A stretch of DNA of 41,118 nt, from contig JAIOAT010000030.1 of assembly GCA_019873685.1 (NCBI GenBank), positions 1 to 41,118 of the forward strand. The letters run 5' to 3'. The notes beneath the pieces were generated by a model that saw only the letters and a program-made list of their open reading frames with translations, was not told the DNA's origin and ran no database searches. Shown in pieces: positions 27,076 through 41,095 of this stretch. Both the position numbers and the translations under genes were made by a program. This DNA is from Chloroflexota bacterium (lineage in GTDB: Bacteria; Chloroflexota; Anaerolineae; Aggregatilineales; Ch27). Within the stretch, counting starts at the first letter, position 1, and every line of letters starts with the position of its first letter.

Positions 27076-27969
27076 TTACCCCTTGACCGCGCCGAGGGTC
27101 AGGCCGCTGATGAAATACCGCTGGAAGAAGATGAAAATAAACAGGGTGGGGATGCTGGCAATGACGGACATCGCTCCCTGAACGCCCCAGGCCACCGAGT
27201 ATTGCCCTTTGAGCGAAATCAGGCCCACCATGATCGTCCGGCTGTTATCCGACTGGGTGAAGATCAACGGCCACAGAAAGTCGTTCCAGATCCAGGTGAA
27301 TTGCAGGGTGGCCAGTACCGCCAGCGCCGGCAGGCTGATCGGCAACATGACTTTGACCAGAATCTGGCCCTCGTTAGCGCCATCGATGATCGCCGCTTCT
27401 CGCAGCGCGGAAGGCACCGTGGCGAAGAAGTTGCGGGTGATCAGGGTGCAGATCGGTAGCCCAAAGGCCACGTGGACGATGATCATCGGCCACAGGGTGT
27501 TGTACAGGCCGACTGTATTGAACAGCCGGAACAGAGGCACCAGGACAATCTGCGGCGGGAAGAACATCCCGGAGACGATCAGGATGAACAGCGCCTCACT
27601 GCCCCGGAAGGGAAGCTGGCTGAAGACATAGCCCAGCAGCACGCCGAGAGCGATGGAGAGCACGGTCGCCGGGATGGTCACCAGGAAGGAGTTGAGCGCA
27701 TACGTGCGCACGTTGCCATTGACCCAGGCTTCCTGGTAGTTAGCGAAGTTGAGTTGCGCCGGCGCCGACCACAACCCGCCCCGCGAGATTTCCGCGTTTG
27801 ACTTGAAAGAGGTGATCAACACGCCGATGCTGGGCATCGAATAGAGGATCACCAGCACAGTCAGCAGCAGGTAGAGTACCACCTGCAGCACACGCCGCCG
27901 GGTCGCCTCCCGCGCCGCCAGACGATCCCATTCCTCCTGCGAATAGCGGTAGAGCGACAGGTCAGTCAT
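27076..27969 (-). CDS. Sugar ABC transporter permease (MalG type)
   Basis: A 297-residue membrane permease. The EAA loop VPSALREAAIIDGANEGQIL followed by VMLPISLPALAV and the C-terminal SGLTLGAVKG identify a CUT1 MalG-type subunit. An N-terminal charged stretch of about 28 residues precedes the first helix. It overlaps the preceding permease gene by 8 bp (ATGACTGA), which implies translational coupling. It is the last gene of the leftward set; 113 bp separate it from the lacI promoter region, with no strong terminator visible. Confidence 0.93.
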   Translation of the reverse strand: MTDLSLYRYSQEEWDRLAAREATRRRVLQVVLYLLLTVLVILYSMPSIGVLITSFKSNAEISRGGLWSAPAQLNFANYQEAWVNGNVRTYALNSFLVTIPATVLSIALGVLLGYVFSQLPFRGSEALFILIVSGMFFPPQIVLVPLFRLFNTVGLYNTLWPMIIVHVAFGLPICTLITRNFFATVPSALREAAIIDGANEGQILVKVMLPISLPALAVLATLQFTWIWNDFLWPLIFTQSDNSRTIMVGLISLKGQYSVAWGVQGAMSVIASIPTLFIFIFFQRYFISGLTLGAVKG

Positions 27970-28843
27970 ACAGGTGCTCCAGCGCCCGAATCTGACGGAA
28001 ATAGAAGGCGATGACGGTCACCGCAATAATGAAAAGCACGACGGAAATCGCGCTGCCGTAACCCATGTAGTACTTCTTGAACGACTCATGGTACATGAAC
28101 ATGGCCAGCGTATCGGAGGAATGAAACGGTCCGCCGCCGGTCATGATGTAGACGATGTCAAAGCTCTTGAGTGAGTTGATCACCGCCAGCGCCACGACCA
28201 CCACCGTGGAAGGCTGTAACAGCGGCACCACCACATGGCGCAGAGTCTGCCAGTAGTTCGCGCCGTCGATCTGGGCGGCGTCGGTCAGTTCGGTGGGCAC
28301 AGCGGTCAGCCCGGCCAGGAAGATGACCATCCCCAGCCCGAGCTGCTGCCAGACCCAGGCCAGAATCACCGAAGGCAGGGCCGTGCCGGGGTCAGCTAAC
28401 CAGGCGCGCGAGAGGTCTTCCAGGCCGATTCCATTCAGGGTCAGGTTGAGCAGTCCCCAGCGCGGCTGGTAAATCCAGATCCAGATCTGGCCGATCACAG
28501 CCAGGGACAGGCAGATGGGCAGGTAGAAAAGCGACTTGTACACGTTAGCGCCGCGCATCCCCTCGTGCAGGATCAGGGCCAGCCCCAGTCCGCCCAGCAC
28601 CGGCACGGTCAGCGCGACTGCAATCCAGATCACCGTGTTCTTGATGGCGTTGCCAAAAAGCGGATCGCTGAAGATACGCTCGAAGTTGCCCAGCCCGACG
28701 AAGTTGTACTCCGGGTTGAAGCCGTTCCAGTCGGTCAGGCTGAAGAAGAAGGAGTAGGCGAGCGGAGCGATGACGATCACCAGGTACAGGGTGAGTGGCA
28801 GCGCCAGAAAGCCAATCCGCCACAACCATTGTGATCGAGCCAC
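27962..28843 (-). CDS. Sugar ABC transporter permease (MalF type)
   Basis: A membrane permease of about 293 residues with EAA-type loop VPTELTDAAQIDGANYWQTL followed by VVVPLLQPS, where the usual EAA reads DAA. The open frame begins with a GTG at 28852 that abuts the AAAGGAG site (no spacing), while the GTG at 28843 has 8-nt spacing; 28843 is preferred. It pairs with the MalG-type permease overlapping its end. The binding protein lies upstream, separated by a gap with a 15-bp-stem hairpin. Confidence 0.9.
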   Translation of the reverse strand: MARSQWLWRIGFLALPLTLYLVIVIAPLAYSFFFSLTDWNGFNPEYNFVGLGNFERIFSDPLFGNAIKNTVIWIAVALTVPVLGGLGLALILHEGMRGANVYKSLFYLPICLSLAVIGQIWIWIYQPRWGLLNLTLNGIGLEDLSRAWLADPGTALPSVILAWVWQQLGLGMVIFLAGLTAVPTELTDAAQIDGANYWQTLRHVVVPLLQPSTVVVVALAVINSLKSFDIVYIMTGGGPFHSSDTLAMFMYHESFKKYYMGYGSAISVVLFIIAVTVIAFYFRQIRALEHLYD

Positions 28844-28921
28844 CGGGGACACTCCTTTTACACCGCCGGTCTGGCTGCCGCCAGGGTGGTTTTTCCCTGC
28901 AGCGCCAGCACACAGAGCTGG

Positions 28922-28959
28922 ACAATGAGGGCAGGGGGAACATTCCCTGCCCTCATTGT
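28922..28959 (-). promoter_or_regulatory. Intercistronic hairpin between binding protein and permease genes
   Basis: ACAATGAGGGCAGGG (28922-28936) and CCCTGCCCTCATTGT (28945-28959) form a perfect 15-bp stem with an 8-nt loop, 18-19 nt after the binding-protein stop. It is the strongest hairpin in the window. No T-run follows on the minus strand, so complete termination is unlikely. Confidence 0.8.
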
Positions 28960-28977
28960 AAACGAAGATGCGGGGTG

Positions 28978-30243
28978 TTAGCTGCCGCCAAAGACCTGGA
29001 CGGCGACCGCCTGGGTTTCTTCCAGGTAGGTCTGGTAGCCAGCCGGATCGTTCATGAACTTGGCGAACAGGTCCAGCCCGCCTTCCGCCATGGGCGGCGT
29101 GGTCGCCAGGTCGTAGTTGAAGGCGAACGTATCCGCGGCAGCCACAGTATCGGCGGCGCGGCTCATCACGTCGTTGTAGATCGAGGGATCAACGTTGACG
29201 TTCGGCGACAGGGCGCCCTGGCCTACCGCCCAGACAGCCTGTGCGTCCGTATCAGTCAGCAGGTAGAGCAGCAGCTTCTGGGCGCTGACCGGGTGGGCGG
29301 CGTTGGCGGACATCACAAAGCCATCCACCGGGCCGACCACCGCATTGGGCACGCCCTCATCAATGGCCGGGAAGGGGAAGAAGTCATAGTTGGTGACCGG
29401 TTCCAGCCCCTGCCCGTTCCAGTAGCCGGTGATCCAGGTGCCCATCAGGGTCATAGCCGCTTCGCCGTTGGCCACCTGATCAGCCGCGTCCGTCCAGTCA
29501 TAGGCGTTGGCGTCGGGAACAAAGTAGCCCTTGTCGACCAGCTCCTTCCACAGCTCCATGACCCGCACGACCTGCGGATCGGTGTAGGAGGCTTCGCCGG
29601 CCATCAGGGCTGCGCGGTATTCTGGCCCGGCGGTACGCAGGAGCAGGTAGTCAAACCAGAACTGGGCCGGCCAGCGGTTCATCGAGCCGAGCGCGATAGG
29701 GGTGACGCCGGAAGCCAGCAGGGTATCGCACATGGCCTTGAACTCGTCCCAGGTGGCCGGGAATTCGGTGATGCCCGCTGCTTCCATCACTGCCGGATTG
29801 TAGAAGAACCCGGCATAGTGATAGCCGAAGGGGATCAGGTAACGCGCGCCGTTGTAGAGCGTGGCGCCCTGAGCAATGGAGGCCGGGACGACCGCATCCA
29901 GGTTGTTGGCGTTCCACAGCTCATCGATCGGGGCCAGTGCGCCGCTGTCCACGACAAACTGCACGCGCGCGCCTGCCCAGTAGGAGAACAGGTCAGGCAG
30001 GTCGCCGCCGGCCGCCATCACTAGGATGGTCGTCTTGAAGTCTTCGTGACCGATGGGGTTATCGAAGATCGTGATGCCGGTCTCGTGCTGGAATTCCTGG
30101 AAGATCTGGTTGAGCGACTCGCGGCCCAGCGTGCCGGTGAAGTAATGCATCACCGTGACGAAACTCTCGCCCTCCTGGGCCAGCGCCGGGAAGACACTGG
30201 CGATCAGGAGCACTGCAACCAACAGGACAGAAAGGCGTTTCAT
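28978..30243 (-). CDS. CUT1-type sugar ABC transporter substrate-binding protein
   Basis: A 421-residue extracellular solute-binding protein. The signal peptide covers residues 1-22 (FPALA before QEGES) without a lipobox cysteine. The mature start VTVMHYFTGTLGRESLNQIF and the AAGGDLPDLFSYW segment fit SBP family 1. The open frame extends to 30270, but the ATG at 30243 starts the signal peptide and has GGAGGAG 8 nt upstream. It lies 58 bp after the duplicated CUT2 binding protein and may be co-transcribed with it. The ligand is unknown. Confidence 0.92.
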   Translation of the reverse strand: MKRLSVLLVAVLLIASVFPALAQEGESFVTVMHYFTGTLGRESLNQIFQEFQHETGITIFDNPIGHEDFKTTILVMAAGGDLPDLFSYWAGARVQFVVDSGALAPIDELWNANNLDAVVPASIAQGATLYNGARYLIPFGYHYAGFFYNPAVMEAAGITEFPATWDEFKAMCDTLLASGVTPIALGSMNRWPAQFWFDYLLLRTAGPEYRAALMAGEASYTDPQVVRVMELWKELVDKGYFVPDANAYDWTDAADQVANGEAAMTLMGTWITGYWNGQGLEPVTNYDFFPFPAIDEGVPNAVVGPVDGFVMSANAAHPVSAQKLLLYLLTDTDAQAVWAVGQGALSPNVNVDPSIYNDVMSRAADTVAAADTFAFNYDLATTPPMAEGGLDLFAKFMNDPAGYQTYLEETQAVAVQVFGGS

Positions 30244-30301
30244 GTTCGGGACTCCTCCTGGAAAAACCATACAAACGGTCTTTAACGACAGCCCAGTTCA
30301 G

Positions 30302-32071
30302 CTACTGGGCCAGCGTTTCCTGAGTGATGAACTGCACCGGGATGGTGTTCTGCACCGGCACGGCGATATCATGGGTGACGGCCCAGACGCCAAAGCGGGT
30401 TGCCCAACGGCCCATGTCGTAAACCGGGATGCGGATGGTCATTGCCAGCTTACCCGCGCGGACCGCTTCCAGCGCATCCGGGAGGGCGTCGATGCCGGTG
30501 ACGATCACGTCATCGCGGCCAGCGGCTTCCAGGGCAGCCAGCGCGCCCATGGCCATTTCGTCGTTGTAGCAGAAGACGGCGTCGATGTCCGGCGTAGCCT
30601 GCAGAATGTTCTCCATCACGCTGAGGGCGGTCGCCCGGTCGTATTCGGCGGTCTGCTGGGCGACGATCTCAATGCCCTCGGCGGCTTCAAAGACGGGGGT
30701 CGAGCCGATCTTGCGATTCTCTGAACTGGCCGCGCCGGGGATGCCCTCCAGCACGACGATACGCCCCGTCCCGCCCAGCCGGTTGACCAGCCATTCAGCG
30801 GCCAGCCGGCCAATCAGGACGTTGTCCGTGCCGATGTGGCTGGTGACCAGCGAGGAGGGTACGCCGCGCTGCATGGTGATCACCGGGATGCCGGCCTGAG
30901 CGGCCTGTTCGACGACGCCGACCGCGCCATCCTGCGTAGCGTTGATCAGCAGGGCGTCAACGCCCGCGGCGATCAGGTCCTCAACGTCCGAAATCTGCTT
31001 CTCCAGCTGGTCATCCGCGCTGAGGATGGTGGCCTCGTAACCCATCGCTGCGGCTTCGTCAGCGGTGCCCTGAGCCAGCAGTTGATAGAAGGGGTTGCTC
31101 TGGGTGGAGACGGATACGCCGATCTTGATCGGCCCTTCGAAAGGCGCAGGCGCGGGGGCATCAACGTTTTCCGCGGTGATAAACTCGATCGGGATCACCG
31201 AACGCAGCGGGACCATATTGCCCTGAATCGCTTCCAGCGCGTAGCGTACTCCCAACCGCCCCATGTCATAGACCGGGATGCGGATGGTCATGGTCAGTTT
31301 GCCGGCCCGGATGGCTTCCAGCGCATCCGGGAGGGCGTCGATGCCGGTGACGATCACGTCATCGCGGCCAGCGGCTTCCAGGGCGGCCAGCGCGCCCATG
31401 GCCATTTCGTCGTTGTAGCAGAAGACAGCGTCGATGTCCGGCGTAGCCTGCAGGATGTTCTCCATCACGCTGAGGGCGGTCGCCCGGTCGTATTCGGCGG
31501 TCTGCTGGGCGACGATCTCAATACCCTCGGCAGCCTCAAAGACGGGGGTTGAGCCAGTCTTGCGGTCTTCCGAACTGGCCGCGCCGGGGATGCCCTCCAG
31601 CACGACGATGCGCCCCGTCCCGCCCAGCCGGTCGATCAGCCACTGGGCAGCCAGTTGACCGATGAGGACGTTGTTGGTGCCGATATGGCTGGTGACCAGC
31701 GAGGAGGGCACACCACGCTGGAGCGTGATCACAGGGATACCGGCCTGAGCGGCCTGTTCGACGACGCCGACCGCGCCATCCTGCGTAGCGTTGATCAGCA
31801 GGGCGTCAACGCCCGCGGCGATCAGGTCCTCAACATCCGATATCTGCTTCTCCAGCTGGTCATCCGCACTGAGGACGGTCACCTGTGCGCCAAGCGCCTG
31901 TGCTTCAGCGACGACGCCCTCAGCCAGGTTCCGGTAGAAGGGATTGCTCTGGGTGGAAACGGATAGCCCCAGCAGCACCGGTTCCTGCGCTGCACTAGCA
32001 GCAGGACCGGCCAGGCCAATCAGCAAGAGGACGATGGCCATGAACAACCCTAAATGTCGTGAGTGAAGCAT
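30302..32071 (-). CDS. RbsB-like sugar-binding protein with two tandem binding domains
   Basis: A 589-residue exported protein, about twice the usual RbsB length. The signal peptide spans residues 1-28 (GPAASA before AQEP). Two complete periplasmic-binding domains of the RbsB type follow: QSNPFY at 41-46 recurs at 324-329, a shift of exactly 283 residues, and NATQDGAVGVVEQAAQAGIP, CYNDEMAMGALAALEAAGRD and TGIDALPDALEA occur in both. The linker around 300-314 is Ala/Pro-rich (VDAPAPAPFEG). The duplication is recent, since the DNA of the two copies is nearly identical over about 600 bp. AAGGGGGAA precedes the ATG. It presumably serves the RbsC/RbsA-type genes just upstream. Confidence 0.92.
   Translation of the reverse strand: MLHSRHLGLFMAIVLLLIGLAGPAASAAQEPVLLGLSVSTQSNPFYRNLAEGVVAEAQALGAQVTVLSADDQLEKQISDVEDLIAAGVDALLINATQDGAVGVVEQAAQAGIPVITLQRGVPSSLVTSHIGTNNVLIGQLAAQWLIDRLGGTGRIVVLEGIPGAASSEDRKTGSTPVFEAAEGIEIVAQQTAEYDRATALSVMENILQATPDIDAVFCYNDEMAMGALAALEAAGRDDVIVTGIDALPDALEAIRAGKLTMTIRIPVYDMGRLGVRYALEAIQGNMVPLRSVIPIEFITAENVDAPAPAPFEGPIKIGVSVSTQSNPFYQLLAQGTADEAAAMGYEATILSADDQLEKQISDVEDLIAAGVDALLINATQDGAVGVVEQAAQAGIPVITMQRGVPSSLVTSHIGTDNVLIGRLAAEWLVNRLGGTGRIVVLEGIPGAASSENRKIGSTPVFEAAEGIEIVAQQTAEYDRATALSVMENILQATPDIDAVFCYNDEMAMGALAALEAAGRDDVIVTGIDALPDALEAVRAGKLAMTIRIPVYDMGRWATRFGVWAVTHDIAVPVQNTIPVQFITQETLAQ
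30409..31876 (-). repeat. Intragenic tandem duplication (849-bp period)
   Basis: Bases 31258-31876 and 30409-31027 are near-identical direct copies with an offset of 849 bp (283 codons), both inside the binding-protein gene. Differences are scattered single bases, most heavily outside this core. This suggests recent duplication or ongoing gene conversion. Confidence 0.88.
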
Positions 32072-32171: not shown

Positions 32172-33140
32172 TCATGCGGCGCTGCTCGCACGAACCCGAC
32201 GATCTACCAGGATAGCGATCAGAATGACGACGCCTTTGGCTACGGGCTGGTAGTAGGCATTGACATTCAGCAGGTTGAGGCCGTTGGAGAGGATGCCGAT
32301 GATCAGCGCGCCAACCAGGGTTCCCACAATGCCGCCCCGGCCACCGGCCAGGCTGGTGCCTCCCAGGACAACCGCGGCGATGGCGTCCAGTTCATCCCCT
32401 GAGCCGAGGTTAGGCTGGGCTGAGCCGAGTCTGCCGGTCAGGATCACCCCGGTGAGACCGGCCAGCAGACCGCTGATGGCATACGTGGCGGCCTTGATCA
32501 GGCGCACCCGCACACCCGACAGGCGTGCGGCTTCCTGGTTGCCGCCAATAGCGTAGACGTAGCTGCCGAATGTCGTACGGTTAAGCACAAAATAGACGGC
32601 TAAATACACCACGATCAGAATAACGATGGGAACCGGCAAGAAGCCGATTCCCCCCCGACCAAGAAAGCGAAAATCGTTGTCCATAGCCATGATGGGCGCG
32701 CCGTTGGTGTAGACGAGAGCGATGCCGCGCGCGATGGTCAAGGTGCCGAGGGTGACGATGAACGGTGCAACGTCGCCAACGGTGATGATCAGGCCATTGG
32801 CCACGCCGAAGGCAAGTCCGATGCCAATGCCAGCCAGGATGGCTGCCAGCGGGCTACTCCCGGCTGCCAGTGTCCCGGCGCTGAAAACGCTGCTGACCGC
32901 CAGCAGCGATCCCACGGAAAGGTCAATACCGCCGGTCAGGATGACCAGCGTCATCCCGGCGGCAACAATGGCGTTAAGCGAAGACTGGCGTACTACATTG
33001 ATGAGATTCTCGGAGGTCAGGAAGCGGGGAGTGAGCAGGGAAAGCAGCAGGCAGATCAGAATCAGCACCACGATGGGTGCCACACTCCCGCCGATTCTCC
33101 GCCAGTCGCGAGTCTCAGTCCGCAAACGCGCCGGAAGCAT
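32172..33140 (-). CDS. Ribose-type (CUT2) ABC transporter permease
   Basis: A membrane protein of about 322 residues (E. coli RbsC has 321), with eight to ten hydrophobic segments. LTGGIDLSVGSLLAVSSV is the signature of RbsC/XylH-type permeases, and GSYVYAIGGNQEAARLSGVR is the cytoplasmic loop that contacts the ATPase. The open frame extends to 33224, but the ATG at 33140 gives the family length and overlaps the ATPase gene by 26 bp; an ATG at 33170 is possible. It forms the channel for the duplicated binding protein encoded downstream. Confidence 0.9.
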   Translation of the reverse strand: MLPARLRTETRDWRRIGGSVAPIVVLILICLLLSLLTPRFLTSENLINVVRQSSLNAIVAAGMTLVILTGGIDLSVGSLLAVSSVFSAGTLAAGSSPLAAILAGIGIGLAFGVANGLIITVGDVAPFIVTLGTLTIARGIALVYTNGAPIMAMDNDFRFLGRGGIGFLPVPIVILIVVYLAVYFVLNRTTFGSYVYAIGGNQEAARLSGVRVRLIKAATYAISGLLAGLTGVILTGRLGSAQPNLGSGDELDAIAAVVLGGTSLAGGRGGIVGTLVGALIIGILSNGLNLLNVNAYYQPVAKGVVILIAILVDRRVRASSAA

Positions 33141-34671
33141 AGCGAATGATGGTCTCCGCAGTGGCAGCATGCCGTTCGAATTGGGCGACAAGGCGACCTC
33201 CGTAGACGACCACGACCCGATCACACAGGCCGAGGAGTTCGGGCAGATCAGATGAGATCAGCAGGATGGCTTTTCCCTGCTCCACCAGCTGGCCGATGAC
33301 GCGATAGATTTCAGTGCGGGCGCCCACGTCAACGCCGCGCGTGGGTTCGTCCAGGATGAGCACGTCGCAGTGGCTGGCCAGCCACTTGGCCAGGATGACC
33401 TTCTGCTGGTTGCCGCCGCTCAGGGTGCGGACCACCTGGGCGATGTGCTGGATGCGGATATCAATCGCCCTGACCAGCTCCCTGACCATGTTTCGTACAT
33501 CAGCCTGCCTGACGATCATGGCGCGGGCGTATCTGGATAACACGGGGAGGCTGATGTTGTCGGCTACCGAACGCTCCAGGATCAGCCCCTGGGTCTTGCG
33601 ATCCTCGGGGACCATGCCGATCCCGGCTTCGATCGCCTGCCAGGTGGAGTGGATCCGTACCGGGCGGCCACGGATTTCGATCCGGCCATGGGGCATCGGA
33701 TCGGCGCCGAAAATCTGGCGGGCCAGTTCTGTTCGCCCGGAACCCATCAGTCCGGCCAGCGCGACAATCTCCCCGGCGCGGACGACCAGTTCGGCGTCAT
33801 GGTCGGTTCGCCCCGGTAAGCCGCTGACCCGCAGGACCACTTCACCCGGTTGGACCTGGCTCTTGGGGTATTGTTCGGTGATTTCCCGGCCAACCATCAT
33901 CCGCACCAGGTCATCGCGGGTCACGGCTTCCACGGGTCGCGTTCCGATCACCCGCCCGTCACGGAGGACGGTGACCCGATCGGCCAGCCTGAACACTTCC
34001 TCAAGCCGGTGAGAGATGTAGATGACGGTCACTCCCTGCTGGCGCAGCCGCCGGACGACGTCAAACAGCGTGGCCGTTTCCTGTTCGCTGAGGGGAGCGG
34101 TGGGTTCGTCCATGATCAGCAGCCGCACACGCCGGGAAAGCGCCTTGGCGACTTCCACCAGCTGGCGTGCTGCGATGCCGAGATCGGCGACAAGCCGGGT
34201 GGGGGGGAGGTCGATCCCCAGCAGGTTAAGCAACTCCCGGCTGCGCTGGTGCATGGTGCGGAAGTCGATGACTCCCTGGACGATTTGCGGCTCGTGGCCC
34301 AGGAAGATGTTGCGCGCCACGCTGAGGTACGGCACCAGGTTCAGTTCCTGGTAAATCACACTGACCCCGATGTGCTGCATACGCGCCGGGGTGGGCTGCT
34401 GAATATGCTGGCCGTCAAAGATGAGTTCGCCGCTATCGGCCTGGTATGCGCCGGAGAGGATTTTGATCAGGGTCGATTTGCCTGCCCCGTTTTCGCCGAT
34501 GAGAGCGTGAATCTCACCAGTCTGGACTTCGAAGTCCACCCTGTCCAGCGCGAGCACGCCCGGAAAACGCTTGGAGACCTGGTTCATACGCAACAGGCAT
34601 GGGGAAGCCGCGCTGCCGGCAGTGGCATCCGGCGGGTGGGCTTGACCGGTGGCGTGCATCAGGTCGTTCAT
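33115..34671 (-). CDS. Ribose-type (CUT2) ABC transporter ATPase with two ATPase domains
   Basis: A 518-residue ATPase of the RbsA/MglA type with two ABC domains. The first has Walker A GENGAGKST (59-67) and Walker B LLIMDEPTA; its signature is LGIAARQLVEVAKAL. The second has the degenerate Walker A GLMGSGRTE usual in this family, signature LSGGNQQK and Walker B LILDEPTRGVD. About 25 residues precede the first domain. It is the first gene of the leftward set, divergent from the IclR regulator, with a near-consensus promoter overlapping two palindromes. It is the only transporter ATPase in the window. Confidence 0.94.
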   Translation of the reverse strand: MNDLMHATGQAHPPDATAGSAASPCLLRMNQVSKRFPGVLALDRVDFEVQTGEIHALIGENGAGKSTLIKILSGAYQADSGELIFDGQHIQQPTPARMQHIGVSVIYQELNLVPYLSVARNIFLGHEPQIVQGVIDFRTMHQRSRELLNLLGIDLPPTRLVADLGIAARQLVEVAKALSRRVRLLIMDEPTAPLSEQETATLFDVVRRLRQQGVTVIYISHRLEEVFRLADRVTVLRDGRVIGTRPVEAVTRDDLVRMMVGREITEQYPKSQVQPGEVVLRVSGLPGRTDHDAELVVRAGEIVALAGLMGSGRTELARQIFGADPMPHGRIEIRGRPVRIHSTWQAIEAGIGMVPEDRKTQGLILERSVADNISLPVLSRYARAMIVRQADVRNMVRELVRAIDIRIQHIAQVVRTLSGGNQQKVILAKWLASHCDVLILDEPTRGVDVGARTEIYRVIGQLVEQGKAILLISSDLPELLGLCDRVVVVYGGRLVAQFERHAATAETIIRYASGAFAD

Positions 34672-34751
34672 GGCTCGCTACCCTGACGGTATCTCGGCAA
34701 GCGCAGCCGTGCTGATAAAGAGGCATAAACCGGGAATCTCCGGCGTTAGTC

Positions 34752-34768
34752 GTTGTTTATTGTACAAC
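34752..34768. promoter_or_regulatory. IclR operator candidate, site 1
   Basis: GTTGTTTATTGTACAAC is a 17-bp palindromic site of the form GTTGT-N7-ACAAC. It covers the -10 box of the leftward promoter. Confidence 0.7.
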
Positions 34769-34787
34769 TGAGTTTCTGTATTGTCAA
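34759..34787 (-). promoter_or_regulatory. Promoter of the leftward CUT2 transporter genes
   Basis: On the minus strand a perfect TTGACA (34782-34787) and TACAAT (34759-34764) are spaced 17 bp apart. Both boxes fall inside candidate IclR sites 1 and 2. Confidence 0.78.
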
Positions 34788-34791
34788 CAAC
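34775..34791. promoter_or_regulatory. IclR operator candidate, site 2
   Basis: TCTGTATTGTCAACAAC has a perfect right half (ACAAC) and an imperfect left half (TCTGT) of the GTTGT-N7-ACAAC pattern. It starts 23 bp from site 1 and covers the -35 box of the leftward promoter. Confidence 0.5.
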
Positions 34792-34803
34792 ATCGGATTC
34801 TCG

Positions 34804-34832
34804 TTGACAGTCCGGGGTGGCTGTTGTATAAT
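34804..34832 (+). promoter_or_regulatory. Consensus promoter of the IclR gene
   Basis: Perfect TTGACA (34804-34809) and perfect TATAAT (34827-34832) with 17-bp spacing. The -10 box lies inside candidate IclR site 3, so autoregulation is likely. Confidence 0.85.
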
Positions 34833-34839
34833 GCACAAC
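34823..34839. promoter_or_regulatory. IclR operator candidate, site 3
   Basis: GTTGTATAATGCACAAC repeats the GTTGT-N7-ACAAC pattern exactly in its arms, spanning the -10 box and transcription start region of the iclR-type gene. Confidence 0.7.
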
Positions 34840-34878
34840 GACTAGACCGGAAGCCGCCTACCACTAAAAGGAACGATC

Positions 34879-35622
34879 TTGTCCGAGATTAAATCACTCG
34901 CCCGCGGGTTGAAGCTGTTGGAGCGCCTGGCTCTGGCTGAAAATGGCGCCGGGATCACGGAATTAGCAGCCCAGCTCGACATCGATAAAAGCAGCGCATC
35001 GCGGTTGGTTCAGACCCTGGCCAGCTATGGCTTTGCCGAGCAGGACCCTGACACGCGCCGCTACCGGCTTGGCCCGCGCATCGTCACGCTCAGCCGCTAC
35101 ATGTTAACGCGCATGCCGCTCCGCGATGAGGCCAAACCGTACCTGCGCCGCCTGGTGGAGCGGACTGGCGAGGGCGCCCACCTTGCCATCCTTTCCCAGG
35201 GGGGCGCTCTCTACATTGATCAGGTCGAATCGCCCGCTACCCTGCGGGCTACCACTGGCGTGGGCACTGTGGCCCCGCTGCATTGCACGGCCCTGGGCAA
35301 GGTCTTGCTGGCCTTTGACGCCAATGCTCGCATGCCGGAGGAATTGAAGGCCTACACGCCGCGGACGATCACATCGCCGGAAACGCTACGTATGCATCTG
35401 GAGCAAACCCGCCGCCAGGGGTATGCCATTGACGACGAGGAGTACGAATACGGCGTCCGCTGTGTGGCGGTGCCCGTGTTTGACTACCGGGGGAAGGCCG
35501 TCGGCGCGATCGGGATTTCCGGCCCGGCGGGCCGGATCAGCCTGGAGCGCCTCCCTGAGCTGGCGGCGATCACCAAGCAAATCGGCCAGGAACTGACCGA
35601 TCGGTTGAGCTTCCGGCCCTAG
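34879..35622 (+). CDS. IclR-family transcriptional regulator
   Basis: A 247-residue regulator. The N-terminal winged helix-turn-helix (about 5-65, with ITELAAQLDIDKSSASRLVQ) precedes the IclR effector domain (75-245), with LHCTALGKVLLAF and GAIGISGPAGRI as recognisable motifs. The start is a TTG at 34879, supported by AAAGGA 7 nt upstream and by the promoter 40 nt before; no better ATG is available. It lies between the leftward CUT2 transporter and the rightward catabolic genes. The 17-bp palindromes at both promoters and before the dehydrogenase gene are its likely sites. Confidence 0.93.
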   Translation: MSEIKSLARGLKLLERLALAENGAGITELAAQLDIDKSSASRLVQTLASYGFAEQDPDTRRYRLGPRIVTLSRYMLTRMPLRDEAKPYLRRLVERTGEGAHLAILSQGGALYIDQVESPATLRATTGVGTVAPLHCTALGKVLLAFDANARMPEELKAYTPRTITSPETLRMHLEQTRRQGYAIDDEEYEYGVRCVAVPVFDYRGKAVGAIGISGPAGRISLERLPELAAITKQIGQELTDRLSFRP

Positions 35623-35679
35623 ATACCGACCGGGTAGGGCTGGGAAGGCCGGTTATTCGCTGCTAATTTACGCAACATG

Positions 35680-35696
35680 GTTGCATAATAAGCAAC
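35680..35696. promoter_or_regulatory. IclR operator candidate, site 4, before the dehydrogenase gene
   Basis: GTTGCATAATAAGCAAC has the same GTTGY-N7-RCAAC layout as the sites at 34752 and 34823. It lies 11 bp before the ATG at 35708 and overlaps a CATAAT that could serve as a -10 box; no good -35 box is seen. Confidence 0.6.
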
Positions 35697-35707
35697 ATGG
35701 AGGCATT

Positions 35708-36775
35708 ATGGAACAACTGCGCGTAGGCTTCATCGGTACGGGGCGTATCTCCGACCTGCATGCACTGGGCTATCTGGGGGATGACCGGGCGCGGATTGTC
35801 GCGGTTTGCGACGTCAACGAAGAAGTCGCCCGCCAGCGCGGGCGAGCCTGGGGCGTCCCCGAAGATCGCATCTTCACCGATTACCGGGACCTGCTGGCGC
35901 TGCCGGATGTCGATCTGGTTGAAAACCTGCTGCCTCATCATCTCCATTACCAGTCTACGCTGGACATCGCCGCTGCTGGCAAGCACATCTCCCTGCAAAA
36001 GCCGATGGCGCTCACCGTTGAGCAGGCCGACGAGATGATCGCTGCGGCCAAACGGGCCGGGGTGATCTTCAAGGTGTTTGAGAACTTCATCTTCTATCCG
36101 CCCATCCAGCGGGCCAAGGCGCTGATCGACGCCGGAGAGATCGGTGACCCGCTGACCATTCGCATCAAGAGCAATTCCGGGATCAGTCCCAATGAGTGGG
36201 AAATCCCGGGGACGGCGTGGGCCTGGCGCTTTAACCGGGAAACGTGCGGCGGTGGCCCGCTCGTTTTCGATGACGGCCACCACAAGTTCTCGCTGGGCTG
36301 GTACTTCATGGGGGAGATTGCCGAAGAGGTGCACGCCTGGATTGGCGAGACGGAATTCGCCCCTGGCCTGGTGCTTGATTCCCCGGCGGCAGTGACCTGG
36401 AAGTTTTCCAATAACCGTTTTGGCCTGTTTGAGGCGGTTCGTTCGCCGGAGCTGGTTATGGATACCAACCACTACGCGCAGGACGACCGGATCGAAATCA
36501 CCGGCACTAAAGGCGTGATCTGGATCACCCGCGGCCACGGCAAGATGCTGGACATCCCGCCGGTGATCCTCTATCGCGACCGGCAGACGCGTACTTTCTC
36601 TGATATGCCCGTAGGCTGGGAGCACAGCTTCATCAATTCGACGCGCCACTTCATCGATGCCTACTTCAAGGGCGAGCCGCCCAGCCTGACTGCCGAGCAG
36701 GGGCGGGACATCCTGCGCTTTGCGCTGGCCGCCCAGGAGTCCGCACGGACTGGCCGTGCTGTGTCGTTGAAGTAA
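35708..36775 (+). CDS. Gfo/Idh/MocA-family NAD(P)-dependent oxidoreductase
   Basis: A 355-residue dehydrogenase. The Rossmann nucleotide loop GFIGTGRIS is at residues 7-15. The usual EKP motif reads QKP (Lys98). The substrate-side motif GGGPLVFDDGHHKFSLGWYF (181-200) holds the conserved Asp and His. The frame is open from 35681, but the ATG at 35708 has GGAGG 4 nt upstream and the upstream part overlaps a palindromic operator. It is probably the first catabolic step, oxidising a hydroxyl of an imported polyol, cyclitol or sugar. Overall fit is to IolG/MocA-like enzymes, but no specific substrate can be named. Confidence 0.92.
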   Translation: MEQLRVGFIGTGRISDLHALGYLGDDRARIVAVCDVNEEVARQRGRAWGVPEDRIFTDYRDLLALPDVDLVENLLPHHLHYQSTLDIAAAGKHISLQKPMALTVEQADEMIAAAKRAGVIFKVFENFIFYPPIQRAKALIDAGEIGDPLTIRIKSNSGISPNEWEIPGTAWAWRFNRETCGGGPLVFDDGHHKFSLGWYFMGEIAEEVHAWIGETEFAPGLVLDSPAAVTWKFSNNRFGLFEAVRSPELVMDTNHYAQDDRIEITGTKGVIWITRGHGKMLDIPPVILYRDRQTRTFSDMPVGWEHSFINSTRHFIDAYFKGEPPSLTAEQGRDILRFALAAQESARTGRAVSLK

Positions 36776-36796
36776 GCCCGGAAGGCGGGTGAAACT

Positions 36797-38596
36797 ATGA
36801 GACTGACAGGCGCAGAAATCGTCGCCGAGATGCTGATCCGGGAGGGCGTCCCTTATGCGATTGGCATCGGCGGCCACGGCAATCTTCCGCTGCTTGACGC
36901 GTTCCGGCAGCGGCGGGATCGTATCCGGGTGATCATGCCCCGCCATGAGCAGGCGGCTGTCCATATGGCGGATGGCTACTACCGGGTCAAGGGGCAGCCG
37001 CTGGCGGTGTTTACCTCGATCGGCGCGGGCGCTTCCAATACCGCTATCGGTCTGGCGACCGCTTATGTCGATTCCATCCCCCTGCTGCTGTTGATCGGGG
37101 AGACCCATACCTATATGCGTGGCGTTGGTGTCCTGCAGGAGATCGAACGCCAGCGCTGGTCTGATCTGCCGCGCATGCTGGAGCCGGCTGTCAAGCGGAG
37201 CTGGCACATCGACAGCGCGGTCCAGTTGCCGCGGGCGGTCTCCCAGGCCTTTAACGCCATGTGCACCGGGCGGCCTGGCCCCACCCTGATCACGCTGCCG
37301 ATGGATGTGCAGGCCGATGCGGTCGAGGTCGACGCGCTGAATCCAGCGGCCCGGCGGCCTCATGATCGTCCGTCGGGCGACCCGGCGGCGATCCGGCAGG
37401 CGGCAGACTTGCTGCTACAGGCCCGGCGGCCCGTCATTGTAGCGGGCGGCGGGGTGATCCTGGCCGCCGCGGAGGCTGAACTCCTGGCCCTGGCGGAGCA
37501 TCTGGGGGCCTGTGTGGTGACGACCATGCAGGGCAAGAGCGCCTTCCCGGAGCAACATCCTCTGTACGCCTGGCATATGGGCACCAACGCCACCACCTGT
37601 GGCAACCATATGACGGTCAACGCAGATGTGATCCTGGCGGTCGGGGTGCGTTTTGCTGATAAGGCGACCTGTTCCTACCGGCCCGGCCAATCGTTCAGCA
37701 TCCCGCCCACCCGGCTGATTCATGTCGACATCGATCCGTTCGAGATCGGCAAGAATTACCCGGTGGAGTGTGGCATCGTCGGGGATGCGAAGGCGGTGCT
37801 GGCGGGATTGGTGGCGGCGGTCAGGGAAGCTACGCCGCCCCGCGCCTGGCAGAACTCCCCTTATACCCGCGAGATCGCCGAGCAGGTTCAGGCCTGGTTC
37901 GCCAGCAACCGCGACCTGCGCGAAGCGGATACGACGCCGGTGACCATGGGGCGGGTGATCACTGAGGTGCGCAAAGTCTTGCCCCGGGATGGCATCGTGC
38001 TCACTTCTTCCGGCAACATCCAGGCGCAGGTATTCCAGGAGATGCCCTTCAGCCAGCCGCGCACGTACATCTCGGCGGGTGGTTTCAGCACGATGGGCTG
38101 GTCGTATCCGGCGGCGCTGGGCGCCAAGCTGGCCGCCCCGGAGAAGCCGGTGGTGGCCATGGTGGGCGACGGCGACTTCCTGATGACCTTCCAGGAGGTG
38201 GCGACCGCGGTGCAATACAACATCCCGGTTGTGGCCGTGGTGCTGAACAACGTGGGCTGGCAGGCCATCCGCGACCTGCAGAAGATCGCCTTTGCTGATG
38301 ACGCGGACTATGCCACGATGTTTGAGCAAAACGGCCAGCCGATCACGCCCCACATCGCTAACGCTGCAGCGGCCTTTGGCGCCTATGCAGTGCGGATCAG
38401 CCGCCCGGATGAAGTCGGGCCAGCGTTGCGCGAGGCGCTGGCGGCCAACCGGCCGGCTGTGGTGGAAGTGATGGTCGATACCCGCTTCGGGACTTCTGGC
38501 GGGCTGGCGCCCGGCTGGTGGGATGTGCCCATTCCGGAATACTACCGGGATCGCTATGAGGCCTACCTGCAGGCCCGGCGCGAAGAGCGCGTGTAG
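36797..38596 (+). CDS. Thiamine-diphosphate enzyme, acetolactate synthase/IolD-like
   Basis: A 599-residue cytoplasmic enzyme with the three-domain layout of acetohydroxyacid-synthase-like proteins: N-terminal pyrimidine-binding domain with catalytic Glu51 in PRHEQAAVHMADGYY, a central domain (about 195-345), and a C-terminal diphosphate-binding domain with the GDG...NN motif (457-485). The C-terminal GWWDVPIPEYYRDRYEAY recalls the WWDVPVAE tail of IolD (trihydroxycyclohexane-dione hydrolase), more than acetolactate synthases. No small regulatory subunit is nearby, which argues against branched-chain amino acid synthesis. It starts 21 bp after the dehydrogenase gene. It likely cleaves or condenses the dehydrogenase product; the exact reaction is unknown. 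Confidence 0.88.
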   Translation: MRLTGAEIVAEMLIREGVPYAIGIGGHGNLPLLDAFRQRRDRIRVIMPRHEQAAVHMADGYYRVKGQPLAVFTSIGAGASNTAIGLATAYVDSIPLLLLIGETHTYMRGVGVLQEIERQRWSDLPRMLEPAVKRSWHIDSAVQLPRAVSQAFNAMCTGRPGPTLITLPMDVQADAVEVDALNPAARRPHDRPSGDPAAIRQAADLLLQARRPVIVAGGGVILAAAEAELLALAEHLGACVVTTMQGKSAFPEQHPLYAWHMGTNATTCGNHMTVNADVILAVGVRFADKATCSYRPGQSFSIPPTRLIHVDIDPFEIGKNYPVECGIVGDAKAVLAGLVAAVREATPPRAWQNSPYTREIAEQVQAWFASNRDLREADTTPVTMGRVITEVRKVLPRDGIVLTSSGNIQAQVFQEMPFSQPRTYISAGGFSTMGWSYPAALGAKLAAPEKPVVAMVGDGDFLMTFQEVATAVQYNIPVVAVVLNNVGWQAIRDLQKIAFADDADYATMFEQNGQPITPHIANAAAAFGAYAVRISRPDEVGPALREALAANRPAVVEVMVDTRFGTSGGLAPGWWDVPIPEYYRDRYEAYLQARREERV

Positions 38597-38634
38597 CGGG
38601 CGGCTGGCAGGCGCGGAGGAGAGAGGAAGCTGGC

Positions 38635-39471
38635 ATGCATGCGCATACCGACACTCTGATCAGCGAGCTGCAGGAGCGGGCGCGCCAGATCCGCCTGGAT
38701 ACGCTGGATATGGTCTACCGGCGTCAGGCGGGCCACCCCGGCGGGTCATTCTCGGCGGCGGAAATCCTGGCGGCGCTATACTTCCACCACCTCAAGATTG
38801 ACCCGGCGAATCCCCGCTGGCCGGAGCGCGACCGCTTCATCTTGAGCAAGGGGCACGCTGCGGCGGCGCTCTACGCGGCGCTGGCCCGGCGCGGCTATTT
38901 CCCCGTGGAGGACCTGGAGAAATGGGGGCACCTGGACGGCCACCTGCAGGGCCACCCGGACCGCGTCAAGACGCCCGGCGTGGAAATGTCTTCCGGCTTT
39001 CTGGGGCACGGGTTGTCGATCGCGGTGGGGATGGCGCTGGCGCAGCGTCTGGGCGGGCCGCGTTACCACATTTATGTCCTGATGAGCGATGGCTGCATGC
39101 AGTCCGGAGTCGCCTGGGAAGGGGCGCTGGCGGCGGCCAAGTACCGCTGCCATGAAGTCACGGTGATCATGGACTATAACGATGTGCAGCTGGACGGCGC
39201 AGCCCATGACATCATGCCGTTGGAGCCGCTCATCGATAAGTGGAAGGCCTTTGGCTTTGCCGTGCTGGAGATCAACGGGCATAACCTCCGGCAGGTTCTG
39301 GATGCCCTGGATGAAGCCCTGGAAATCCACAGTATGCCGACGGTGATCCTGGCGCACACCACCAAGGGCAAAGGGGTTTCCTTTATGGAAAACACGGCGC
39401 TGTGGCATGGCGCGGTCCCCAACAGCGAGCAGTACGCCAAGGCCCGCGCCGAGTTACTGGGGGGAGCATGA
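38635..39471 (+). CDS. Transketolase-like N-terminal subunit
   Basis: A 278-residue protein equal to the thiamine-diphosphate-binding half of transketolase. Conserved histidines are in QAGHPGGS (34) and SKGHAAAALY (74). The metal/cofactor motif normally written GDGE...EG reads SDGCMQSG (151-158), with Asn182 in DYNDVQLDG still present; this departs from housekeeping transketolases. It overlaps the start of the C-terminal subunit gene by one base, so the two are translated together and form one enzyme. Split transketolase-like pairs act in specialised routes, for example on apulose 4-phosphate in apiose catabolism. Confidence 0.92.
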   Translation: MHAHTDTLISELQERARQIRLDTLDMVYRRQAGHPGGSFSAAEILAALYFHHLKIDPANPRWPERDRFILSKGHAAAALYAALARRGYFPVEDLEKWGHLDGHLQGHPDRVKTPGVEMSSGFLGHGLSIAVGMALAQRLGGPRYHIYVLMSDGCMQSGVAWEGALAAAKYRCHEVTVIMDYNDVQLDGAAHDIMPLEPLIDKWKAFGFAVLEINGHNLRQVLDALDEALEIHSMPTVILAHTTKGKGVSFMENTALWHGAVPNSEQYAKARAELLGGA

Positions 39472-40421
39472 TGGCTGAGGTACCACAACGCCAGGCTTAT
39501 GGCATGGCTCTCGCTGAATACGGGGATGTGAACCCGGATGTCGTCGTCCTCGACGCCGATGTATCGTCCTCCACGCTGACCAAGTACTTCGCCGATCGTC
39601 ATCCATCTCGCTTTTTCAACCTGGGGGTCACGGAAGCGTCGATGGTCAATGTCGGGGTAGGGCTGGCGCTGAGCGGCAAGATTCCCTTCGTGAACACCTT
39701 CGCCGCCCTCTTGACCCTGCGCGCCTGTGAGCAGATCCGTACCTGTGTGGCCTACGCCAACGCCAACGTTAAGCTGATTGGCGGCTACGCCGGACTGTCG
39801 GATTACAAAGACGGGCCGACGCACTTCGCTGTCAACGATGTCGCCCTGATGCGCGCCATGCCCAATGTGGTCGTCATCGCCCCGGCGGATAACATCGAGG
39901 CGGCGCGGATGGTGCGGGCCATTGCCGAGCATGAAGGCCCGGTGTATATGCGGATCAGCCGGGCGGCAGTGCCCGACGTGTTCGGCCCGGATCATCAGGT
40001 GCAGATCGGCAAAGGGATCATGCTGCGACCCGGCAGCGATGTGACCATCATCGGCTCAGGCAGCATGATGGGACGGTGTGTCCGGGCGGCGGATCAACTG
40101 GCGGCGGAAGGGGTGAGCGTCCGTCTGCTGAACATCCACACCCTCAAGCCGCTGGATGTTGACCTGATCTGCCAGGCCGCCGAAGAAACCGGCGCTCTGG
40201 TGACAGCAGAGGATCACAGCGTCATCGGGGGACTGGGTGGAGCGGTGGCCGAGGCGCTTGGTCGCTGTTGCCCGACGGTGCTGGAAACGGTCGGGTTGCA
40301 GGACACCTTTGCCGGCACCGGGCTGGACACCGAGTCCTTGATGGATGCCTGGGGGCTGGCGGTACAGGATATCATCAACGCAGCGCGGCGGGCTGTGGAG
40401 CGCAAAGCCCGGCGCCGCTGA
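39471..40421 (+). CDS. Transketolase-like C-terminal subunit
   Basis: A 316-residue protein equal to the pyrimidine-binding and C-terminal domains of transketolase. The catalytic Glu55 is in GVTEASMVNVGVGLAL. GGYAGLSDYKDGPTHFAVND is the conserved loop of the family. Two candidate ATGs occur, at 39468 and 39471; the latter has better spacing from GGGGAG and overlaps the TGA of the N-terminal subunit by one base. It forms the active enzyme with that subunit. Confidence 0.92.
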   Translation: MAEVPQRQAYGMALAEYGDVNPDVVVLDADVSSSTLTKYFADRHPSRFFNLGVTEASMVNVGVGLALSGKIPFVNTFAALLTLRACEQIRTCVAYANANVKLIGGYAGLSDYKDGPTHFAVNDVALMRAMPNVVVIAPADNIEAARMVRAIAEHEGPVYMRISRAAVPDVFGPDHQVQIGKGIMLRPGSDVTIIGSGSMMGRCVRAADQLAAEGVSVRLLNIHTLKPLDVDLICQAAEETGALVTAEDHSVIGGLGGAVAEALGRCCPTVLETVGLQDTFAGTGLDTESLMDAWGLAVQDIINAARRAVERKARRR

Positions 40422-40465
40422 TCCCGCCCGTCATCGCTATGCCAGTCATTGAAGGAGCGTCACCC

Positions 40466-41095
40466 ATGCGAATCGCCGTGATCAATGAAACCAGCGCCGC
40501 TGACCGGAACGCCGATATCCTGGCGGCGCTGGAAGGCCGCGGGCACACCATCATAAACGCCGGGATGGTCAGGAACGGGGCCAAACCGGAACTGACTTAC
40601 ATCCACACCGGGCTGTACGCCGCCATGCTCCTCAACCTGGGCCGGGTGGATTTTGTCGTCGGCGGGTGCGGGACGGGGCAGGGCTTTTTGAACGCCGTCA
40701 TGCAGTACCCGGGGGTGGTCTGCGGGCATATCCTCAACTCGCTGGATGCGTGGCTTTTCGCCCAGATCAATGGCGGCAACTGCATCTCGCTGGCGCTGAA
40801 TCAGGGCTATGGCTGGGCGGCGGATGTCAACCTGCGCTTCATCTTCGACCGGCTGTTCAGCGTCGAACCCGGCGGCGGCTACCCGCCGCACCGCCGCGAA
40901 TCGCAGCAGGAATCGCGGCGGATTCTGGCCAGCGTCTCCGCGGCGACTCACCGGCCCTTCGCTGAGATCATCGCCCTGCTACCCGATTCGGTGATCAAGC
41001 CGGTGCTGGAATTTCCCGGCGCGGCGGCGCTGATTGACGTCGATTCGATCGCGGATGCCGATCTCCGCGCGGCGCTGCGGCAGCGGATGATGTAG
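40466..41095 (+). CDS. RpiB/LacA/LacB-family sugar-phosphate isomerase
   Basis: A 209-residue protein. The first 150 residues follow the RpiB/LacB fold; the catalytic Cys68 lies in GCGTGQG (67-73), and NGGNCISLA corresponds to the NANVL segment of RpiB. An extra C-terminal tail of about 60 residues is typical of the longer subgroup linked to unusual sugar phosphates. The ATG at 40466 has AAGGAG 8 nt upstream; an upstream in-frame ATG at 40439 lacks such a site. It begins 44 bp after the transketolase subunit and is the last complete gene of the window. It probably interconverts an aldose and ketose phosphate produced or consumed by the transketolase. Confidence 0.88.
   Translation: MRIAVINETSAADRNADILAALEGRGHTIINAGMVRNGAKPELTYIHTGLYAAMLLNLGRVDFVVGGCGTGQGFLNAVMQYPGVVCGHILNSLDAWLFAQINGGNCISLALNQGYGWAADVNLRFIFDRLFSVEPGGGYPPHRRESQQESRRILASVSAATHRPFAEIIALLPDSVIKPVLEFPGAAALIDVDSIADADLRAALRQRMM

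What the first reader, a model, noticed from the sequence alone, without database searches (positions are those of the whole stretch)
34672..41095. IclR-controlled catabolic locus for an unidentified polyol, cyclitol or branched sugar
A Gfo/Idh/MocA dehydrogenase, an IolD/acetolactate-synthase-like thiamine-diphosphate enzyme, a split transketolase and an RpiB/LacAB-type isomerase are packed in one operon, divergent from a CUT2 transporter. Each family is known, but I do not recognise this exact set as a described pathway. Oxidation, C-C cleavage or ligation, two-carbon transfer and isomerisation would make a coherent route. The known use of split transketolases on apulose 4-phosphate, and of IolD on a cyclic diketone, gives two starting hypotheses.
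Basis: partly seen in the sequence, partly recalled or inferred. Interest (0 to 1): 0.75.

Follow-up and report, generated by a model that had tools for sequence, protein, structure and literature searches.

The report
Operon predicted to make malonate semialdehyde
A cluster of sugar-breakdown genes with its own regulator gene, found together from Chloroflexota to Clostridia, likely forms an undescribed route that would cut an unidentified sugar acid or cyclitol into xylulose 5-phosphate and malonate semialdehyde.

Summary
In detail: IclR, Gfo/Idh/MocA dehydrogenase (GFO), ThDP enzyme (TPP), split transketolase (TKN, TKC) and an RpiB-fold isomerase (RPIB) lie in one operon divergent from a CUT2 transporter. 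The unit is widely conserved: of 80 loci with the TPP gene, 41 have RPIB, and 33 of those 41 have TK. The isomerase is of the DhuI-type family (42% to DhuI) but forms its own clade. A palindrome, GTTGN9CAAC, flanks IclR; a stricter form has 3 sites in the 4.1-Mb genome, all here, and the palindrome recurs in Clostridia.

A partner lies beyond the window in many relatives: a malonate-semialdehyde-type dehydrogenase (MMSDH). In 30 RPIB genomes it is in the locus in 19, elsewhere in 8 (all 8 with canonical IolD), absent in 3. So the route likely ends in malonate semialdehyde.

Best reading: GFO and TPP give a deoxy-uronate; RPIB and TK cut it to xylulose 5-phosphate and malonate semialdehyde, a carboxylate twin of the sulfo-transketolase pathway. 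All chemistry is inferred and the substrate (hexuronate or cyclitol) is open; an IclR relative with the same operator heads an inositol operon in another genome, which favours a cyclitol.

The parts
34752..34768 (.). operator-like palindrome GTTGTTTATTGTACAAC, between transporter and IclR
   Evidence: binding not tested
34823..34839 (.). operator-like palindrome GTTGTATAATGCACAAC, between transporter and IclR
   Evidence: binding not tested
34879..35622 (+). IclR-family regulator
   Evidence: HTH_IclR and IclR_C over cut-off
35680..35696 (.). operator-like palindrome GTTGCATAATAAGCAAC, before GFO
   Evidence: binding not tested
35708..36775 (+). Gfo/Idh/MocA dehydrogenase (GFO), IolG-like but below the IolG cut-off
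   Evidence: (123 of 355 bits)
36797..38596 (+). ThDP enzyme (TPP), 599 aa, outside the IolD and acetolactate synthase cut-offs
38635..39471 (+). transketolase N-terminal subunit (TKN)
39468..40421 (+). transketolase C-terminal subunit (TKC)
   Evidence: start at 39468 or 39471
40466..41095 (+). DhuI-type isomerase (RPIB)
   Evidence: PRK09273 over cut-off; 42% to DhuI 4u8e over 182 residues; own clade
33115..34671 (-). CUT2 ABC transporter ATPase
32172..33224 (-). CUT2 permease
30302..32071 (-). CUT2 sugar-binding protein, two binding domains in tandem
27076..30270 (-). CUT1 ABC transporter (two permeases, binding protein); candidate second uptake system of the locus
   Evidence: binding protein SBP_bac_1 with relatives near TPP in 10 of 80 loci; permeases read by eye; role inferred from placement

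Best explanation
This is a conserved catabolic operon in which the dehydrogenase and the IolD-like ThDP enzyme likely turn a sugar acid or cyclitol into a short deoxy-uronate, which the DhuI-type isomerase and the split transketolase would then convert, with glyceraldehyde 3-phosphate, into xylulose 5-phosphate and malonate semialdehyde. Malonate semialdehyde would be burned to acetyl-CoA and CO2 by an IolA-type dehydrogenase (MMSDH), which is encoded in the locus in many relatives and, in this genome, only in the separate canonical inositol operon. IclR likely controls the operon and the divergent transporter through three GTTGN9CAAC sites. Shown here: the genes, their linkage across genomes, the isomerase family and clade, the sites as sequence motifs, and where MMSDH lies. 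Inferred: every chemical step. The inferred intermediate is 4-deoxy-penturonate, OHC-CHOH-CHOH-CH2-COO(-); the isomerase would make HOCH2-CO-CHOH-CH2-COO(-), which a transketolase can cut to malonate semialdehyde. Most speculative: GFO makes a 5-keto-hexuronate (C6H8O7) and the ThDP enzyme removes CO2, expels the neighbouring hydroxyl and hydrolyses the acyl-ThDP, giving C5H8O5.
For: Linkage: of 80 loci, RPIB in 41, TKN in 36, TKC in 33, GFO in 54, IclR in 37; TK in 33 of 41 RPIB loci. RPIB of these loci is one 100/100 clade apart from DhuI. Neighbouring dehydrogenases are MMSDH over cut-off. In 30 RPIB genomes MMSDH is a single copy in 27 and absent in 3; it is in the locus in 16 of 18 without and 3 of 12 with a canonical IolD, and the 8 that keep it elsewhere all have canonical IolD. 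G496 has canonical IolG, E, D, B and C but its only MMSDH is in the TPP locus. Canonical IolC is over cut-off in 10 of 32 RPIB genomes. The order TKN-TKC-RPIB is that of SqwG-SqwH-SqwI (passages). IlvD-type loci, none of 11 with RPIB, share GFO, TPP, IclR and often the CUT1 binding protein, and carry SSADH-like dehydrogenases; from the same C5 acid these would give 2-oxoglutarate.
Against: No substrate or activity is known for any of these proteins. 8 of 41 RPIB loci lack TK in view, and 3 of 30 RPIB genomes lack MMSDH (G510, G511, G512). L079 has TPP and MMSDH without RPIB or TK. IolG and IolD likeness and an IclR relative (about 50%) with the same palindrome on an inositol operon in G503 favour a cyclitol over a uronate. 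The C5 of a uronate has no free hydroxyl in the pyranose form, so oxidation there would need the furanose or open form. No authenticated SqwI was at hand to place RPIB. The MMSDH tests do not correct for kinship.
Confidence: 0.42

Rival explanations
1. An inositol-isomer pathway without IolB, IolC and IolJ: GFO oxidises a cyclitol, TPP gives 5-deoxyglucuronate (C6), RPIB does the IolB step, and TK cuts 2-deoxy-5-ketogluconate into xylulose 5-phosphate and malate semialdehyde.
For: TPP shares GHG and WWD motifs with IolD; GFO is IolG-like over its whole length; DhuI is the counterpart of KduI, which is in one family with IolB (passages of PMC12838403); an IclR relative with the same palindrome heads a canonical inositol operon in G503.
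Against: It makes malate semialdehyde, so it does not explain why a malonate-semialdehyde-type enzyme goes with RPIB. TPP and GFO miss the IolD and IolG cut-offs. The own genome already has a canonical inositol operon.
Confidence: 0.27
2. TPP cleaves a 3-keto sugar directly into malonate semialdehyde and a three-carbon aldehyde, and RPIB and TK deal with the other half.
For: GFO enzymes often make 3-keto sugars (recalled); a PF01261 protein with a weak match to a 2-hydroxy-3-keto-glucal hydratase lies in some loci.
Against: MMSDH is beside TPP in 19 of 30 RPIB genomes but in 1 of 18 without RPIB (as read by me), so it follows RPIB, not TPP and GFO alone.
Confidence: 0.08
3. A sulfoquinovose (sulfo-transketolase) pathway, with TPP acting as a sulfoacetaldehyde acetyltransferase-like enzyme.
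For: Same order as SqwG-SqwH-SqwI, and SqwI is PF02502 (passages); TPP scores 310 bits on Xsc TIGR03457.
Against: Xsc cut-off 676 not met; none of the operon's genes is left over for the SqvD or SqwF roles; MMSDH rather than a sulfonate enzyme goes with RPIB.
Confidence: 0.04
4. Apiose/apulose catabolism through the split transketolase.
For: Split transketolases act on apulose 4-phosphate (recalled).
Against: No gene of the operon is a kinase or is left over for an apiose isomerase; GFO, TPP and MMSDH would have no role.
Confidence: 0.03

Closest known systems
Sulfoglycolytic transketolase (sulfo-TK) pathway, SqwGH and SqwI
   Same: Split transketolase followed by a PF02502 isomerase in the same gene order; predicted substrates share the head OHC-CHOH-CHOH-CH2
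   Different: Carboxylate instead of sulfonate (predicted); GFO, TPP and MMSDH instead of SqvD and SqwF or SqwD; no SqwI sequence was compared
Canonical myo-inositol pathway (iolABCDEG)
   Same: IolG-like and IolD-like first enzymes (both below cut-off) and an IolA-type last enzyme, which the two systems seem to share
   Different: No IolB, IolC, IolE or IolJ in the operon; isomerase and transketolase instead of kinase and aldolase
[quoted passage not shown]
   Same: Same family (PRK09273 over cut-off; 42% identity over 182 residues)
   Different: Separate clade, linked to TPP and transketolase, not to the reductase DhuD
Split-chain transketolase, PDB 6yak
   Same: Two-gene transketolase; TKN scores 312.7 bits against 152.7 for the next chain
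   Different: Here bound to one operon, beside a full-length transketolase gene elsewhere in the genome

Membership tests
IolD (TIGR04377) | score over 715 bits | tested here: not met
   319.1 bits; the own genome's IolD scores 952.6
IolD (TIGR04377) | GHG near the N-terminus and WWD tail, as in the own IolD (my choice of motifs) | tested here: met
   GHG in 79 of 80 loci, xWD tail in 78 of 80, both misses cut by a contig end
Acetolactate synthase (TIGR00118) | score over 538.35 bits | tested here: not met
   419.5 bits
Sulfoacetaldehyde acetyltransferase Xsc (TIGR03457) | score over 676.4 bits | tested here: not met
   310.2 bits
PRK09273 / DhuI-type isomerase family | score over 137 bits | tested here: met
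   195.8 bits
DhuI proper | linkage to a DhuD-type reductase and grouping with DhuI | tested here: not met
   no reductase of that kind among the operon's genes; other side of a 100/100 branch
Canonical inositol pathway | IolB, IolC, IolE and IolJ in the operon | tested here: not met
   gene content of the operon
Sulfo-TK pathway | transketolase pair followed by a PF02502 isomerase | tested here: met
   SqwG-H-I order and PF02502 from passages
Sulfo-TK pathway | SQ isomerase and sulfoacetaldehyde reductase or dehydrogenase | tested here: inconclusive
   none among the operon's genes; rest of the genome not searched for them
IclR regulon | binding of IclR to GTTGN9CAAC | not testable with these tools
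   motif evidence only
Route to malonate semialdehyde by isomerase and transketolase | enzyme activities | not testable with these tools
   inferred from the placement of MMSDH

The most novel reading that the evidence does not exclude
A new sugar-acid pathway, the carboxylate twin of sulfoglycolysis: a dehydrogenase makes a 5-keto-hexuronate, and one ThDP enzyme performs decarboxylation, beta-hydroxyl elimination and hydrolysis in a single active site, giving 4-deoxy-penturonate. Two alternative modules bring it into central metabolism: DhuI-type isomerase, split transketolase and MMSDH (to xylulose 5-phosphate and acetyl-CoA), or SSADH-like dehydrogenase and an IlvD-type dehydratase (to 2-oxoglutarate). 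The first module shares its MMSDH with the inositol pathway.
Probability: 0.27. Interest if true: 0.78.

Novelty: new variant of a known kind. Interest (0 to 1): 0.6.

Why it matters
If right, Chloroflexota and Clostridia known mostly from metagenomes hold an unrecognised route for a sugar acid or cyclitol, with an isomerase clade of its own and a ThDP enzyme family that the curated IolD and acetolactate synthase models leave below their cut-offs. It would extend the transketolase logic of sulfoglycolysis to carboxylates and explain why single MMSDH genes sit outside inositol operons. The palindrome and the placement of MMSDH make it directly testable.

Tried and rejected
Housekeeping acetolactate synthase or transketolase: rejected as the main reading, since the genome has a separate ALS-like enzyme (its role judged from the alignment) and a separate transketolase N-terminal match in a 670-aa open frame.

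Sulfoquinovose and apiose readings: see rivals.

Direct formation of malonate semialdehyde by TPP: I leaned to this until I saw that the aldehyde dehydrogenases of IlvD-type loci are SSADH-like with the Glu motif, not MMSDH. My cluster c1 and the 'MMSDH' column had lumped both types, so I do not use that column; MMSDH counts come.

Structure prediction of TPP (mean pLDDT 78.1) and Foldseek gave glyoxylate carboligase, HKA synthase, acetohydroxyacid synthase and cyclohexane-1,2-dione hydrolase together; not decisive.

Search for further operator sites in 28 relatives with the looser GTTGYNYANNRNRCAAC: 22 of 28 had a match, 62 strand matches against 32 for the reversed pattern, so at this looseness it is only about twice its control. 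Of ten regions fetched, eight lay around sites outside the TPP locus: G503 showed an inositol operon with its own IclR; two sites (L197, L201) lie in or at the start of a weak GPH-like transporter frame (23%); the other five told me nothing about the substrate. The last two regions, inositol operons of G495 and G496, had no site.

Literature (open-access library): searches listed no paper on this gene set; none of the 8 papers shown holds 'apulose'; one search showed nothing on the enzyme BbmA. Sulfoquinovose listings.

The script had a wrong expression for GHG and reported 0; one search gave 77 of 80, and one search showed the motif in two of the three misses, hence 79 of 80 (L074 has CHG). 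Not run: a tree of TPP with authenticated IolD, CDH, GCL and Xsc; a comparison with authenticated SqwI.
Full report
WHAT IS THERE. The window is contig C30 of a 4.1-Mb genome; the best named matches of TPP are Aggregatilineales and other Chloroflexota. The contig ends with the window, so what follows RPIB was read in relatives.

FAMILIES. RPIB is over the cut-off of PRK09273 (195.8 against 137 bits) and nearest the solved gbs1892 (4u8e), which I know from memory as DhuI; it is 42% identical over 182 residues. DhuI is described as of the RpiB/LacA/LacB family and as the non-homologous counterpart of KduI, which is in one family with IolB (passages of PMC12838403). TPP scores 419.5 bits on acetolactate synthase (cut-off 538) and 319 on IolD (cut-off 715), so it is a member of neither. 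It shares a GHG motif and a WWDV tail with the genome's own IolD and not with its ALS-like enzyme; GHG is in 79 and the tail in 78 of 80 loci, both tail misses being cut by a contig end. A histidine at this place matters, from memory, in cyclohexane-1,2-dione hydrolase; PDB 4d5g is its H28A/N484A variant. GFO is IolG-like but below cut-off (123 of 355 bits). TKN is nearest the split transketolase 6yak.

THE UNIT IS CONSERVED. A scan of named genomes gave 217 relatives of TPP, of which the best 80 were kept. Within 8 kb: RPIB in 41, TKN in 36, TKC in 33, GFO in 54, IclR in 37 of 80. TK is in 33 of 41 RPIB loci; the 3 TKN loci without RPIB end within 1.8 kb of TPP. Fifteen of 80 show none of the partners. 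Contig ends cut many loci, so counts are lower bounds. In Clostridia with TPP at 45 to 50% identity the order TPP-GFO-TKN-TKC-RPIB-IclR recurs. In 291 genomes of the class of a Clostridia relative, 47 had an RPIB homologue; the four with 61% identity or more to the query, its own genome among them, lie in TPP loci. None of 16 stretches fetched around weaker homologues, three of them short, shows a TPP-family gene. In a tree of RPIB (84 rows, 72 different) the 49 TPP-locus rows and one more (L097, long branch, next to a transketolase in L135) form a 100/100 clade apart from DhuI.

REGULATOR AND SITE. GTTGN9CAAC occurs three times in the window, at 34752, 34823 and 35680, in the two gaps beside IclR. 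Markov sequences of like make-up give 0.40 on average and reached three in 2 of 300. The stricter GTTGNNYAWTNNNCAAC has 3 sites in the whole genome, all here; the reversed pattern has 0. In the 80 loci, 46 of 58 sites of GTTGN9CAAC lie near starts of genes of the families used (9% of the bases), against 6 of 37 for the control CAACN9GTTG; 31 of 80 loci and 29 of 37 IclR loci have such a site. A palindrome scan upstream of TPP in 15 Clostridia loci, which did not ask for this motif, found it in 8. A looser pattern in 28 genomes was only about twice its control (62 against 32 strand matches). Binding by IclR is inferred.

THE MISSING PARTNER. In L004, L005, L008 and many Clostridia an aldehyde dehydrogenase lies in the cluster. 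Those scanned (L004 518, L045 550, L008 545, L073 521 bits; cut-off 448.5) are CoA-acylating malonate/methylmalonate-semialdehyde dehydrogenases. The window's genome has one close relative, 65% identical to that of L004, beside IolC and IolD in an inositol operon (IolB, IolE and IolG read by eye). Of 48 genomes searched, 30 have an RPIB locus: one MMSDH in 27, none in 3 (G510, G511, G512). It lies within 10 kb of TPP in 16 of 18 genomes without a canonical IolD over cut-off and in 3 of 12 with one; the 8 that keep it elsewhere all have canonical IolD (Fisher p 0.0012, not corrected for kinship; G520, with an IolD piece below cut-off, counted as without). G496 has canonical IolG, E, D, B and C, yet its only MMSDH is in the TPP locus. 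Canonical IolC is over cut-off in 10 of 32 RPIB genomes, the window's and G421 included. In the 18 genomes without RPIB, MMSDH is beside TPP in 1, L079 (read by me). So MMSDH goes with RPIB rather than with TPP and GFO alone. I take this as the best evidence that the module makes malonate semialdehyde.

CHEMISTRY (INFERENCE). A transketolase releases malonate semialdehyde from HOCH2-CO-CHOH-CH2-COO(-), whose aldose isomer is OHC-CHOH-CHOH-CH2-COO(-). The substrates of DhuI and SqwI carry the same OHC-CHOH-CHOH-CH2 head, with CO-COO(-) and SO3(-) (structures from general knowledge; roles from passages). SqwI is PF02502 and its activity was not measured directly (PMC9594981, one passage); in Faecalicatena the isomerase gene follows SqwG and SqwH (PMC11659671, passages), as here. 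A C5H8O5 acid can come from a hexuronate by oxidation to C6H8O7 and loss of CO2, if the ThDP enzyme then expels the beta-hydroxyl and hydrolyses the acyl-ThDP, as phosphoketolase and Xsc do in related steps (recalled). Eleven of 80 loci have an IlvD-type dehydratase near TPP on its strand, none of them with RPIB. The dehydrogenases seen beside it (L011, L013, L014, L015, L018, and L025 on the other strand) have the Glu motif LELG, and the five scanned (all but L013) are SSADH-like, below cut-off. From the same C5 acid these two enzymes would give 2,3-dihydroxyglutarate and 2-oxoglutarate. The CUT1 binding protein of the window has relatives in both kinds of locus, as if the substrate were the same. 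That two modules suit one intermediate is suggestive, not proof.

THE MAIN RIVAL. A cyclitol is favoured by the likeness to IolG and IolD and by G503, the genome of L018, where an inositol operon is headed by an IclR about 50% identical to those of Chloroflexota loci here and by the same palindrome. It would lead to malate semialdehyde, which leaves MMSDH unexplained. L079 (Haloarcula) has TPP and MMSDH without RPIB or TK, with aldolase-like and dehydratase-like genes by eye, and may be a true inositol variant: relatives of TPP need not share one substrate.

VERDICT. A real, conserved catabolic operon that I did not find described. The module-level reading (isomerase and transketolase to malonate semialdehyde) is moderately supported; the substrate is open.

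Noticed in passing
window 30302-32071: The CUT2 binding protein is two binding domains in tandem (halves 82% identical in protein over 274 residues, 89% in DNA over 723 bases); the same-genus locus L133 has a single-domain gene of 320 aa.
   Followed up: partly
window 22969-25836: A HAD hydrolase domain fused to a GH65 enzyme in one 955-aa frame.
   Followed up: no
L195 (G503 C58:136000-153000): A canonical inositol operon headed by an IclR gene 49-50% identical to IclRs of this study, with GTTGTGCATTATGCAAC.
   Followed up: partly
L147 / L153 (G247): A different cluster: CUT2-like transporter, TKN, TKC and a DhuI-side isomerase, a VOC-like protein and a transaldolase-like protein by eye.
   Followed up: no
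L033, L036, L037, L041, L043 (L044 in part): Marine Chloroflexota carry a TPP relative in a fixed block; in L036 it holds a CoA-transferase III, a CopC/CopD/cytochrome protein and an HpcH/HpaI-like protein.
   Followed up: no
L082, L083: TPP relatives beside ThuA-like and histidinol-dehydrogenase-like genes and a permease, all judged by eye.
   Followed up: no
L133 16249-19000 (same genus, G421): Downstream of RPIB lie frames that look like CRISPR-associated genes, judged by eye and not tested.
   Followed up: no
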